Positions 38,436 to 63,746 of a stretch of 64,000 bases of DNA are shown here, piece by piece. Both the position numbers and the translations under genes were made by a program. Source of the DNA: Albidovulum denitrificans (GTDB lineage Bacteria; Pseudomonadota; Alphaproteobacteria; Rhodobacterales; Rhodobacteraceae); the NCBI RefSeq assembly GCF_002973535.1, contig NZ_PVEP01000008.1, positions 62,001-126,000 of the forward strand, in the 5' to 3' direction. Under the pieces are notes generated by a model that saw only the letters and a list, made by a program, of their open reading frames with translations, had not been told where the DNA came from and did no database searches. Positions within the stretch are counted from its first letter, which is position 1. Every line of letters begins with the position of its first letter.

Positions 38436-38639
38436 GGTGGGCCGCTCCGGTGGTTTCGGGGTCTTTCGGGACCTCTAGTGCGAACCGGCGCGGGAGGCCA
38501 GAGGGGTTTCTGGCGAGAGGCGGCGGGGTGGTGGAGTTTCCGATAGTGGATGGCGTGTTGCGGATCGGGGCGCGAAAGCGACGCTTCGGCGCGATTTTCC
38601 GGCTTGTGCGGCGGTCCGGGCCGCTTTATCCCCGGCGGC

Positions 38640-38687
38640 GGGACACCCCTCCCCAACGAGGGGCGTATATCTGGAAGGATACCAGCA
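38640..38687 (+). promoter_or_regulatory. Structured serC leader, resembling the alphaproteobacterial serC RNA motif
   Basis: Just before serC, CCCCTC (38646-38651) pairs with GAGGGG (38658-38663), followed by a second small hairpin in which CTGG (38671-38674) and CCAG (38682-38685) enclose the AAGGA ribosome binding site, two bases before the ATG. Position and two-hairpin layout match the published serC motif, a candidate cis-regulator of serine genes. Ligand and mechanism are unknown. Confidence 0.6.
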
Positions 38688-61485: not shown

Positions 61486-62109
61486 ATGACCCGCAATCTG
61501 ATCCCCGGCATTCTTGCCATGGCCGCCATTGTCGTGGCCTCCAACATCCTTGTGCAGTTCCTGTTCGGCCAATGGCTGACCTGGGGTGCCTTCACCTATC
61601 CCTTCGCCTTCCTCGTCACCGACCTGACGAACCGCTTCCAGGGCGCCGCCGCCGCGCGCAAGGTGGTCGTGGCGGGTTTCGTCGTCGGCGTGATCTGTTC
61701 GCTGATCGGTACGCAGATCATGGGCGAATTCGGCCCCCTCGTGACGCTGCGCATCGCGCTTGGCTCGGGCCTAGCGTTCCTGACGGCGCAGTTGATGGAC
61801 GTGCAGGTCTTCAACCGCCTGCGCAAGGGAAGCTGGTGGCGCGCGCCGCTGGTTTCCACCCTGATCGGGTCGTCCCTCGATACGATCCTCTTCTTCACCG
61901 TCGCGTTTTCGGGCGCGCTCGCCTTCATCGAACCGGCCAATGACGTGTCCTGGGCGACTGAGGTTCTGCCGCTTCTGGGCGCCGGGCCGATGGTGCCGCT
62001 TTGGGTGTCGCTCGCGACGGCGGACTGGCTTGTGAAACTGTCGCTCGCCATTGTGGCATTGGTGCCGTTTCGCGTGATTGTGGGCCGATTGACGGAACGC
62101 ATTGCGTAA
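61486..62109 (+). CDS. yhhQ: Queuosine precursor transporter (YhhQ/VUT family)
   Basis: A 207-residue polytopic membrane protein with six hydrophobic segments. It carries the COG1738/YhhQ signatures FTYPFAFLVTDLTNRFQG and WWRAPLVSTLIGSSLDTILFFTVAF. E. coli YhhQ imports preQ0 and preQ1 for tRNA queuosine synthesis. No que genes are adjacent. The ATG at 61486 fits the family N-terminus; the ribosome binding site before it is poor, which fits control by the upstream leader fold. Confidence 0.92.
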   Translation: MTRNLIPGILAMAAIVVASNILVQFLFGQWLTWGAFTYPFAFLVTDLTNRFQGAAAARKVVVAGFVVGVICSLIGTQIMGEFGPLVTLRIALGSGLAFLTAQLMDVQVFNRLRKGSWWRAPLVSTLIGSSLDTILFFTVAFSGALAFIEPANDVSWATEVLPLLGAGPMVPLWVSLATADWLVKLSLAIVALVPFRVIVGRLTERIA

Positions 62110-62115
62110 AAACGT

Positions 62116-62155
62116 TTGACAGACACAAAATCTGTGGCAGCCTGTGGATAACGGC
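62116..62155 (+). promoter_or_regulatory. TTGACA -35-like element, small inverted repeat and a perfect DnaA-box match
   Basis: TTGACA is at 62116-62121. ACAGA/TCTGT (62119-62123 and 62131-62135) is an inverted repeat overlapping it. TGTGGATAA (62143-62151) is the exact reverse complement of the DnaA consensus TTATCCACA and occupies the place where a -10 would be. No standard -10 was found, so the promoter call is tentative. Confidence 0.4.
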
Positions 62156-62179
62156 AACGCAGAGAAAGGAGGTGATCCA

Positions 62180-62236
62180 GTGTCTAGAGTGATATTGGAG
62201 AGAGGTGTCGGGACAGTCAGGGGGGCCGTGGCCTAA
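62180..62236 (+). CDS. 18-codon GTG-start peptide VSRVILERGVGTVRGAVA with perfect Shine-Dalgarno
   Basis: The GTG at 62180 is seven bases after GGAGG, within the 18-nt anti-16S match, and the frame ends at TAA 62234-62236. The peptide has three Arg and many Val/Gly residues and no hydrophobic anchor. The second half of the ORF forms the 5' arms of both long stems, so a translating ribosome would prevent their folding. This looks like a leader peptide or small-protein gene inside a structured RNA. Whether it is translated is untested. Confidence 0.45.
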   Translation: MSRVILERGVGTVRGAVA

Positions 62237-62316
62237 GGGCAGACCCATGGGTTAAGAACCCTGACTGGGCCTTGTCGATCTTCGACACCCTAACTGGCCC
62301 ATCTCCGTAGATCTCG

Positions 62317-62348
62317 AAGGGCTGCTCCCACCCGGAGCAGCCCTTTCC
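62317..62348 (+). terminator. Intrinsic terminator of the small transcript
   Basis: AAGGGCTGCTCC (62317-62328) pairs with GGAGCAGCCCTT (62334-62345), 12 perfect base pairs with a five-base loop, followed by a short T/C tail. It is among the strongest terminators in the window and ends the unit before the amidase gene. Confidence 0.88.
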
Positions 62349-62417
62349 GTTTGGCGCCTCTGGTCAAGGCATCGGGGCGGCGCTACCGTCCGCCCGATGG
62401 GCAGTGGAGGGCGGATC

Positions 62418-63746
62418 ATGGACGGTGACCTGAGGGCGACGGCGGGCGATCTTGGCCGGGCGATTGGTGCCGGAACGGTCGATCCGGTGGATCTGGCCGA
62501 ACGCTATCTGACCGCTATTGCCGCCCATCCCGACGCCGACCGCATCTATGCCCGCATGACACCCGATCGCGCGCGGGCCGAGGCGAAGGCCGCGGCCGAA
62601 CGCGCGAAGGCGGGCCTGCGCCTGTCGCCGCTCGATGGGGTGCCGATATCCTGGAAAGACCTGTTCGACAGCGCGGGTGTCGCGACCGAGGCCGGGGCGG
62701 CGCTTCTGAAGGGCCGCGTGCCTGACGCCGACGCGACCGTGCTGGCGAATGCGACCAGCCTTGGCCTGATCTGCCTTGGCAAGACGCATATGACGGAACT
62801 TGCCTTTTCCGGCCTCGGACTGAACCCGGTTACCGCGACGCCGCCGAACGTGAACGATCCGGCGCTGGTGCCGGGCGGGTCGTCCTCGGGCGCCGCGACC
62901 TCGGTCGGGTTCGGGCTGGCCGCCGCCGCCGTGGGGTCCGATACGGGCGGGTCGGTGCGCATCCCGGCGGCGTGGAACGATATTGTCGGGCTGAAGACCA
63001 CCTCGGGCCGGCTGCCCCTGACCGGCGTCGTGCCGCTTGTCGCCAGCTTCGACACGGTCGGCCCACTGACCCGCAACGTCGAGGATGCGGCGCTGCTGTT
63101 CGCCGCGCTTGAGGGCGCAAGGCCCGCCGATCTGCGCGGCGCAGGGCTGCATGGCGCGCGGCTCGCCATCCTCGACACGCTTGCCTTCGACGACATCCGC
63201 GACGCCCCCGCCCGCGCCTTCGACAGCGCCGCCGCGCGCCTGTCGGCCGCCGGGGCGCGGATCGACCGGCTGACCTTCCCGGCGCTGGATGAGGCGATGG
63301 CGCTGGCCGGTATCCTTTTCACGGCTGAGGCCTACGCGACCTGGCGCGAGAAGATCGAGGCCGCGCCGGACCTGATGTTCCCGCCGGTGCGTGAACGTTT
63401 CCGCGCGGGCGCCGCCTACAACGCCGCCGATTTTGTCGCCGCCTGGCTGCGGCTAAGGGCGATCCGCGCCGAATGGTCCGATACCACCGCCGCCTATGAC
63501 GCGGTGCTGATCCCGACCTCGGCCATCCTGCCGCCGAATGCCGCGCGGCTTGTCGCTGACCACGACTATTTCGTGACCGAGAACCTGCTGGCGCTGCGCA
63601 ACACAAGGATCGGCAACCTTCTGGGCGTTTCGGCGCTGACCCTGCCCAGCGGAACACCGTCTTGCGGTATCATGCTGATGGGCAAGCCTTTCGGGGAAGA
63701 GGCGCTTTTGCGTCTTGGTGCGGCGGCGGAAAAGGCCCTGGGGTAA
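62418..63746 (+). CDS. Amidase (amidase-signature family)
   Basis: A 442-residue serine amidase with the Ser-cisSer-Lys triad: Lys near residue 75 in VPISWKDLFD, and the serines in PGGSSSGAATSVGFGLAAAAVGSDTGGSVRIPA. It hydrolyses C-N amide bonds; substrates range widely (indoleacetamide, aryl amides, glutamyl-tRNA in GatA). It is not GatA, since gatC/gatB are absent and the sequence is divergent. ATG 62418 is chosen over the in-frame ATG at 62397 because GGAGGG lies ahead of the former. It stands alone. Confidence 0.88.
   Translation: MDGDLRATAGDLGRAIGAGTVDPVDLAERYLTAIAAHPDADRIYARMTPDRARAEAKAAAERAKAGLRLSPLDGVPISWKDLFDSAGVATEAGAALLKGRVPDADATVLANATSLGLICLGKTHMTELAFSGLGLNPVTATPPNVNDPALVPGGSSSGAATSVGFGLAAAAVGSDTGGSVRIPAAWNDIVGLKTTSGRLPLTGVVPLVASFDTVGPLTRNVEDAALLFAALEGARPADLRGAGLHGARLAILDTLAFDDIRDAPARAFDSAAARLSAAGARIDRLTFPALDEAMALAGILFTAEAYATWREKIEAAPDLMFPPVRERFRAGAAYNAADFVAAWLRLRAIRAEWSDTTAAYDAVLIPTSAILPPNAARLVADHDYFVTENLLALRNTRIGNLLGVSALTLPSGTPSCGIMLMGKPFGEEALLRLGAAAEKALG

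What the first reader, a model, noticed from the sequence alone, without database searches (positions are those of the whole stretch)
62156..62350. Compact structured transcript with an 18-nt exact complement of the 16S rRNA 3' end and an 18-codon ORF
Seen in sequence: AGAAAGGAGGTGATCCAG at 62163-62180 is complementary, base for base, to the expected alphaproteobacterial 16S 3' end (CTGGATCACCTCCTTTCT). Ordinary ribosome binding sites use 4-7 of these bases. It sits seven bases before a GTG that opens an 18-codon frame whose codons form the 5' arms of two perfect long-range stems, and a 12-bp terminator ends the unit. Inference: either a translation-dependent switch (ribosome passage melts the stems), a highly expressed micro-protein, or an RNA that captures 30S subunits. 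No known RNA family was recognised. This is the best candidate for an undescribed element in the window.
Basis: partly seen in the sequence, partly recalled or inferred. Interest (0 to 1): 0.85.

Follow-up and report, generated by a model that had tools for sequence, protein, structure and literature searches.

The report
Known ribosome-capturing small mRNA, rreR
A short bacterial RNA with an unusually long ribosome-binding site and an 18-codon reading frame looks like an already published gene (rreR); new here is that evolution seems to guard where translation starts and stops rather than the peptide made, and that in most relatives examined the RNA sits just before a ribosome-rescue gene.

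Summary
AGAAAGGAGGTGATCCAG (62163-62180) complements the 16S 3' end of a relative; 17 of its 18 positions are conserved. An 18-codon ORF (62180-62236) and a 12-bp terminator follow. The unit is not undescribed: RF01867 (CC2171) matches end to end at 43.2 bits, below its cut-off of 75. SD and ORF fit rreR of Hahn et al. 2017 (citation verified; content recalled). It matches in 164 of 198 family genomes.

New here: the stop stays at codon 19 in 115 of 130 homologues, switching among TGA, TAG and TAA at least 33 times, while pN/pS is about 0.9. So a fixed-length translation appears selected, not the peptide. One of the two long-range stems covaries; the other is not conserved. A 3' anti-SD can pair with the SD. 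An ArfB-like ribosome-rescue gene follows in 100 of 125 family loci, though not in this window.

Best mechanism: a small mRNA whose folding, and probably stability, is set by 30S capture and ribosome passage. Function is unproven.

The parts
62116..62121 (+). -35-like TTGACA of the unit's own promoter; no convincing -10 element was identified
   Evidence: TTG[AC]C lies 45-50 nt before the 18-mer in 85 of 125 family homologues, anywhere in the 60 nt before it in 89 of 125
62156..62344 (+). full-length match to Rfam RF01867 (CC2171)
   Evidence: 43.2 bits, E 5.3e-8, model 1-159/159, below gathering score 75
62163..62180 (+). extended Shine-Dalgarno sequence, 18 nt complementary to the 16S 3' end, 17 positions conserved (one as A/G)
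62180..62236 (+). 18-codon ORF (GTG start, TAA stop)
62176..62199 (+). hairpin holding the start codon: UCCAGUGUC (62176-62184) with GAUAUUGGA (62191-62199)
   Evidence: 98.1% of cells paired in 46 family sequences, slid controls 36-47%; no two-sided changes, so no covariation evidence
62214..62267 (+). helix between ORF codons 12-15 (CAGTCAGGG 62214-62222) and the 3' region (CCCTGACTG 62259-62267)
   Evidence: covariation score 0.324 against 0.204 shuffled, 0 of 500
62237..62246 (+). possible small hairpin right after the stop codon (GGG 62237-62239 with CCC 62244-62246); weakly supported
   Evidence: inner helix 90.1% paired, outer helix 51.1%; the control slid by +1 pairs more than the structure itself (76.3 against 67.6%)
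62290..62297 (+). CTAACTGG; CTAACYG is near-invariant in the family, partner unknown
62300..62306 (+). CATCTCC, internal anti-SD able to pair with SD GGAGGTG (62168-62174); resembles the 16S tail CACCTCC
   Evidence: 7 of 7 pairs, G-U allowed, in 117 of 125 family sequences; 97.8% of cells paired, slid 52-68%, one-sided changes only
62317..62345 (+). intrinsic terminator, 12-bp stem
   Evidence: a terminator-like stem by a loose rule (6 bp or more, 3 T or more) in 125 of 125 family homologues tested
61486..62109 (+). upstream neighbour, Vut_1 transporter family
   Evidence: Pfam PF02592 E 1.8e-27; upstream in 28 of 30 family loci
62397..63746 (+). downstream neighbour, amidase; 1 of 30 family loci has it
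   Evidence: Pfam PF01425 E 3.2e-76

Best explanation
This is rreR, a small mRNA of its own transcription unit and the Rhodobacteraceae branch of a class-wide family that also covers Bradyrhizobium rreB and Rfam CC2171. Shown by sequence: a 17-nt SD, a start codon, a frame of fixed length, a covarying helix joining the ORF to the 3' half, an anti-SD able to close the SD, and a terminator. Inferred: a 30S subunit captured by the long SD opens the start hairpin and the SD:anti-SD closure. One ribosome then runs a frame of fixed length and stops at a set place in the fold. Which helices exist, and so how long the RNA lives or which 3' segment is free, reports ribosome availability. The peptide is largely a by-product.
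For: In 125 family homologues (5 of 130 with indels or misplacement left out) the SD positions are kept at 96-100%, except the first G (91%) and one site that is A 76, G 44, C 5. Start codon ATG or GTG in 29 of 29 best-scoring class loci found by covariance model. Stop at codon 19 in 115 of 130, as TGA 54, TAG 39, TAA 22, no TGG. At least 33 parsimony switches among stops in 114 tips of a tree made from the element itself; codons 16-18 show 35, 37 and 29 different codons with one stop in total. pN/pS 0.90, 1.30 and 1.87 in three groups, higher than in their shifted frames. Covarying ORF:3' helix in the family. Outside the family, codons 2-6 pair with the segment before their own terminator better than with others' (48 representatives of 110, 0 of 2000 permutations, z -8.0; control segment z -0.6). 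Predicted SD:16S pairing outweighs the unfolding cost in 125 of 125. RF01867 hits in 12 of 12 loci scanned, 6 of which that model had not brought in, among them a 14-codon Bradyrhizobium form. SD-plus-start pattern in 37 of 67 same-class and 0 of 182 other same-phylum genomes.
Against: No expression data were available. The helices differ between orders: the codon 2-6 helix has no support in Rhodobacteraceae (5 representatives of 57, z 0.5), and a self-complement to the SD is clear there and in Bradyrhizobium, intermediate in one Rhizobiales group, weak in the others. SD-helix and start-hairpin changes are one-sided, so they cannot show covariation. In the covarying helix the number of pairs with two-sided change is not above shuffles (5 against 4.7; 292 of 500), though cells and score are. 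The window's second long-range stem is not conserved. RNA constraint on synonymous sites can push pN/pS to 1 even if the peptide matters. In the CC2171-like, SSDF and remaining groups ORF lengths run from 20 to 35 codons. A ribosome-profiling study of Caulobacter says its ncRNA regions, mostly intergenic, are not translated; whether that covers CC2171 is unknown. The SD alone may give up to 28 bits of the CC2171 score. Most class genomes sampled show no hit at the thresholds used (61 of 289 with a hit; 54 of 289).
Confidence: 0.6

Rival explanations
1. A gene for a functional 18-residue micro-protein, made strongly from a very good ribosome binding site.
For: Start and stop are conserved; the first 13 residues look alike within Rhodobacteraceae.
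Against: pN/pS about 1 or above in all groups computed, 0.89 to 1.87, and not lower than in shifted frames except in one group of 4 pairs where the comparison is mixed; codons 16-18 free; no shared peptide between orders beyond Met-Ser; several conserved codons are fixed at all three positions, as RNA would be.
Confidence: 0.12
2. A 30S decoy: an RNA that ties up small subunits through a 17-bp duplex to lower translation.
For: Predicted duplex -32.2 kcal/mol in the window, net favourable in 125 of 125. Recalled: rreB RNA co-sediments with 30S and is weakly translated.
Against: A decoy needs neither a start codon nor a stop fixed at codon 19; it would have to rival ribosomes in number, which is untested.
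Confidence: 0.15
3. A translation-sensing attenuator leader for the ribosome-rescue gene arfB: impaired translation of the ORF lets polymerase pass the terminator into arfB.
For: ArfB-like gene (RF-1 domain; the name ArfB is my label from recall) on the same strand after the unit, within the stretch fetched, in 100 of 125 family loci. Where a start could be assigned (43 of 100) the gap after the terminator is a median 39 nt, 21 of 43 at most 35 nt, an SD-like tetramer in 8 and TTG[AC]C in 11 of 43. Works like the S. meliloti uORF leader (PMC12218461, passages).
Against: The window's own copy precedes an amidase, and its third RF-1-domain gene lies on another contig. Outside the family the linkage is absent: 0 of 29 class loci; of 87 named-scan loci with other peptides one has an ArfB hit, not downstream on the same strand. 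The ORF is as well kept in unlinked loci, 23 of 25 against 91 of 100. Terminator T-tracts do not differ (6.72 against 6.48 T). No antiterminator was seen, without a systematic search, and a leaderless arfB promoter overlapping the terminator is possible.
Confidence: 0.15
4. Fragment of a 16S gene or an assembly artefact.
For: The SD equals the 16S complement.
Against: Only the tail complement matches, in the antisense direction; Rfam finds no rRNA here; conserved as a unit, match in 164 of 198 genomes.
Confidence: 0.01

Closest known systems
rreR / rreB small mRNAs (Hahn et al. 2017, RNA Biol 14:1353-1363; citation seen in the reference list of PMC7298713; content recalled, paper not held)
   Same: SD of 16 nt or more against the 16S 3' end, 18-codon ORF in the Rhodobacter/Roseobacter lineage (14 in Bradyrhizobium), GTG start, small separate transcript
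   Different: Nothing seen contradicts identity. Added here: stop-codon evidence, anti-SD, covariation, presence also in Sphingomonadales (not in the recalled list), arfB linkage
Rfam RF01867 CC2171 (described by Rfam as a Caulobacter sRNA)
   Same: Full-length covariance match; consensus contains GAAAGGAGGUGAUCCAGUGUCU; terminator; in members outside Rhodobacteraceae a helix from early ORF codons to just before the terminator
   Different: Filed as an sRNA gene; window copy below gathering score; the early-ORF helix is not supported in Rhodobacteraceae
uORF leader of the S. meliloti DUF1127 gene (PMC12218461, passages read)
   Same: Short translated ORF whose ribosome occupancy is proposed to sense translation and control what lies downstream
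   Different: Proposed Rho-dependent attenuation with C-rich codons; no extended SD was named in the passages read (term search 'extended' found none)
Extended SD of rpsU in Flavobacteriales (PMC9976891, start of abstract in the search listing only)
   Same: An extended SD on one special mRNA, discussed with sequestration of the 16S tail
   Different: A ribosomal-protein mRNA in Bacteroidia, not a free small RNA
Extended SD-aSD initiation in Staphylococcus aureus (PMC13009471, passages)
   Same: Extended SD pairing with the 16S tail; a leader-peptide uORF among its examples
   Different: A feature of many of that species' mRNAs (about 30% of initiation sites by its estimate), not of one small RNA

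Membership tests
rreR (Hahn 2017; defining features recalled) | At least 16 nt complementary to the 16S 3' end upstream of a small ORF | tested here: met
   18 nt in the window, checked against a relative's 16S
rreR (Hahn 2017; defining features recalled) | 18-residue ORF conserved in the Rhodobacter/Roseobacter lineage | tested here: met
   18 codons in 115 of 130 family homologues
rreR (Hahn 2017; defining features recalled) | Identity with the published rreR sequence | not testable with these tools
   Paper not held
rreR (Hahn 2017; defining features recalled) | RNA binds 30S and is regulated at the ribosome | not testable with these tools
   Needs wet work; only predicted energies here
RF01867 CC2171 | Score at or above gathering score 75 | tested here: not met
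   43.2 bits; so named a relative, not a member by Rfam's rule
RF01867 CC2171 | Match to the model beyond the SD motif | tested here: inconclusive
   1-159/159 aligned; of 4 loci with SD and start judged unrelated, 3 give no CC2171 hit and one (L133) gives 28.3 bits, so roughly 15 bits may lie beyond the SD
RF01867 CC2171 | Helix between early ORF codons and the segment before the terminator | tested here: not met
   Supported outside Rhodobacteraceae (z -8.0), no support within (z 0.5, but only 5 representatives)
Transcription-attenuator leader | Conserved regulated gene directly downstream | tested here: not met
   Window: amidase, in 1 of 30 family loci. In relatives an ArfB-like gene in 100 of 125
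Transcription-attenuator leader | Mutually exclusive antiterminator structure | not tested
   No systematic antiterminator search was made; folds inspected by eye only

The most novel reading that the evidence does not exclude
An RNA in which evolution keeps the start, the stop and the ribosome's path but not the peptide: a free-standing ribosome-occupancy sensor that carries both a 17-nt SD and, in Rhodobacteraceae, an imitation of the 16S tail to close it. In that family it would be wired to arfB, so that failing translation switches on ribosome rescue.
Probability: 0.25. Interest if true: 0.8.

Novelty: new member of a known kind. Interest (0 to 1): 0.5.

Why it matters
The function of the rre/CC2171 RNAs is, as far as I know, open. 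The stop-codon pattern turns the question 'peptide, RNA or act of translation?' into a direct mutational test, and the arfB linkage gives a concrete output to measure. Linking rreB, rreR and CC2171 would also join a 'small mRNA' and a 'non-coding sRNA' literature.

Tried and rejected
Rfam at gathering score finds only a serC leader elsewhere in the window. A first per-sequence helix test with shuffled 3' segments had little power: 18 of 177 at p 0.05 or less; replaced by the cognate/non-cognate test. A general anti-SD in all groups was tested and not borne out: mean z -2.10 in Rhodobacteraceae, -2.18 in Bradyrhizobium, -1.64 in the SSDF group, -0.46 to -0.96 in the others. A 13-nt 16S-tail mimic is not clear outside Rhodobacteraceae; within, 9 or more of 13 match in 70% against 6% of shuffles, as expected from pairing with the SD. 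Codons 7-11 were meant as a control but also pair (z -8.4), so they are no control. The ORF GGTGTCG:CGACACC stem is not conserved. Greedy ORF calling for neighbours gave artefacts and was replaced by tblastn. Terminator T-tracts do not differ between arfB-linked and unlinked loci: 6.72 against 6.48 T. A literal search for the SD letters in papers found 946 papers; the 40 listed look, by title and abstract start, like primer and genome papers, and none was opened.

Rows dropped: 8 loci as unrelated, truncated or odd (L086, L102, L105, L111, L112, L133, L160, L199) and 3 skipped (L089, L148, L158), leaving 177; of these 167 kept by terminator position and used; 5 of 130 family loci with insertions or deletions near the SD, or misplaced, left out (125). 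One search aligned 46 of the 116 non-redundant family sequences. Of 164 family genomes with a match I read 130. Of 34 without a match I tested 20 and found the motif in 6.

Full report
1. What is there. The 18-nt complement to the 16S 3' end sits at 62163-62180, as reported. It is the only exact match of its 15-base core in the window. The 16S tail was not taken on trust: two loci of a complete genome of the same family (G045) end in CTGGATCACCTCCTTTCT, and the one scanned is a full SSU rRNA match. The window's own assembly shows no 16S gene. The unit runs from a TTGACA (62116-62121) through the SD, a GTG-started 18-codon frame ending in TAA (62180-62236), several helices, and a 12-bp terminator (62317-62345). 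It folds much better than shuffles (z -4.13).

2. Is it known? At Rfam's default threshold nothing is reported here. At E-value threshold the whole unit aligns end to end to RF01867, CC2171, a Caulobacter sRNA, at 43.2 bits against a gathering score of 75; the CC2171 consensus itself contains GAAAGGAGGUGAUCCAGUGUCU. How much of this is the SD alone? Of four loci that carry SD and start but look unrelated, three give no CC2171 hit and one gives 28.3 bits. So the match goes beyond the motif, but not by much. From memory, the unit fits rreR of Hahn et al. [quoted passage not shown] I could verify the citation only (reference list of PMC7298713); the paper is not held. Two loci named Bradyrhizobium (L150, L159) carry a 14-residue frame ...KRCHLAGIAR, and L150 is also a full-length CC2171 relative at 43.6 bits. 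I therefore take rreB, rreR and CC2171 as one family. Searches of the held library for CC2171, RF01867, rreB/rreR and related words found no paper that says so; most subscription papers are not in that library. Rfam 15 lists CC2171 among families whose structure gained a covarying pair (PMC11701678, passage), and a Mesorhizobium sRNA table lists one candidate as CC2171 (PMC5596092, passage).

3. Distribution. A DNA search with the window element finds a match in 164 of 198 genomes of the family, the own genome included. Of 34 without a match, 20 were tested by pattern and 6 have a divergent copy. RF01867 finds 61 of 289 class genomes, 9 over the cut-off. The pattern AAAGGAGGTGRTCNNRTGTC finds 54 of 289, with none for the reversed control in the rows listed. 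In the phylum sample the 37 positive genomes are all among the 67 of the same class and none among the 182 others (my count of its rows). Four shown ones stand apart (L105, L111, L160, L133); three read into frames of 100 codons or more and one, a Gemmatimonadota MAG, has 21 codons.

4. What is selected. 130 family homologues were fetched by similarity, not by start or stop. In the 125 without indels or misplacement near the SD, its positions are kept at 96-100%, except the first G (91%) and one site that is A 76, G 44, C 5; A and G can both pair with the 16S U. The start is GTG in 126 of 130 as aligned; of the rest two have a shortened SD followed by ATG, one has TTG and one is a misplaced alignment (my reading of the rows). 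In the 29 best-scoring class loci found by covariance model the start is ATG or GTG in all. The stop lies at codon 19 in 115 of 130, as TGA 54, TAG 39 and TAA 22, never TGG. On a tree of 125, built from the element itself, this needs at least 33 changes among the three stops (114 stop-bearing tips), while codons 16-18 show 35, 37 and 29 different codons with one stop in all. Yet pN/pS is 0.90 in 53 distinct Rhodobacteraceae frames, 1.30 in 15 sphingomonad frames and 1.87 in 6 Bradyrhizobium-type frames, higher than in their shifted frames; two CC2171-like sets with 8 and 4 usable pairs give 1.15 and 0.89. Structure constrains synonymous sites, so the ratio alone is not proof. Together with free codons before a fixed stop it points to selection for where translation ends rather than for what is made.

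5. Fold. In 46 family sequences the helix between ORF codons 12-15 and 62259-62267 covaries: score 0.324 against 0.204 shuffled, 0 of 500 shuffles, best slid control 0.114; the plain number of pairs with two-sided change, 5, is not above shuffles. The start hairpin and the SD:anti-SD helix are paired in 98.1% and 97.8% of cells (slid 36-47% and 52-68%) but change on one side only, so shuffles say nothing. The hairpin at the stop codon is doubtful: a slid control pairs more. The anti-SD heptamer pairs fully with the SD, G-U allowed, in 117 of 125 sequences. Outside the family a different helix closes the RNA: codons 2-6 with the segment just before the terminator. Own partners pair at -9.17 against -6.64 kcal/mol for foreign ones, 48 representatives of 110 sequences, 0 of 2000 permutations; the next segment upstream shows nothing (z -0.6). 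That helix is not supported in Rhodobacteraceae. So the fold differs between orders, while a theme (initiation region closed by a 3' segment next to the terminator) recurs.

6. Energetics, predicted only. The SD:16S duplex is about -31 kcal/mol on average and opening the SD and first codons costs about 15, net favourable in 125 of 125 family sequences. In the CC2171-like (SHC) group, 38 sequences, 30S occupancy raises the predicted openness of the pre-terminator segment from 0.24 to 0.49; in Rhodobacteraceae the change is small, 0.41 to 0.46. This weakens the idea that 30S binding alone frees the 3' segment in the window's own family.

7. Neighbours. In the family the order is Phytase-like (26 of 30), Vut_1 (28 of 30), rreR, and an RF-1-domain, ArfB-like gene follows on the same strand in 20 of 30 loci. 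In the 125 family loci, 100 have it within the stretch fetched. Where the start could be assigned (43 of 100) it lies a median 39 nt after the terminator. In the window's genome an amidase follows instead, and the third RF-1-domain gene is on another contig. The ORF is equally kept in linked (91 of 100) and unlinked (23 of 25) loci, and the linkage was not seen outside the family (0 of 29 class loci). So arfB control, if real, is a family-level addition and not the ancestral role.

8. Verdict. Identity as rreR: about 0.9 likely, resting partly on recall. Mechanism: a small mRNA governed by ribosome capture and passage, 0.6. A functional peptide is the least supported of the biological readings. 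Ribosome profiling in Caulobacter is reported to have re-classified two earlier ncRNAs as translated (PMC4117421, passage); whether CC2171 is one could not be checked, and the same paper says that the ncRNA regions, mostly intergenic, are not translated.

Noticed in passing
downstream of 62345 in relatives, e.g. L006, L015, L182: In 100 of 125 Rhodobacteraceae loci an ArfB-like ribosome-rescue gene follows rreR, in several starting within about 15 bases of the terminator; in the window's genome and its same-genus relative G010 the RF-1-domain gene lies on another contig.
   Followed up: partly
38636-38687: serC leader RNA (RF00517), 72.9 bits, the only Rfam gathering-level hit in the window.
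   Followed up: no
62290-62297: CTAACYG motif nearly invariant in Rhodobacteraceae rreR without an obvious covarying partner; possible protein site or target seed.
   Followed up: no
genome handles G209, G474, G467 (G209): Some alphaproteobacterial genomes show two or three matches to the element.
   Followed up: no
L133:5042-5234: A Gemmatimonadota MAG contig has the SD, a GTG and a 21-codon frame with a weak CC2171 hit (28.3 bits); chance, transfer or contamination.
   Followed up: no
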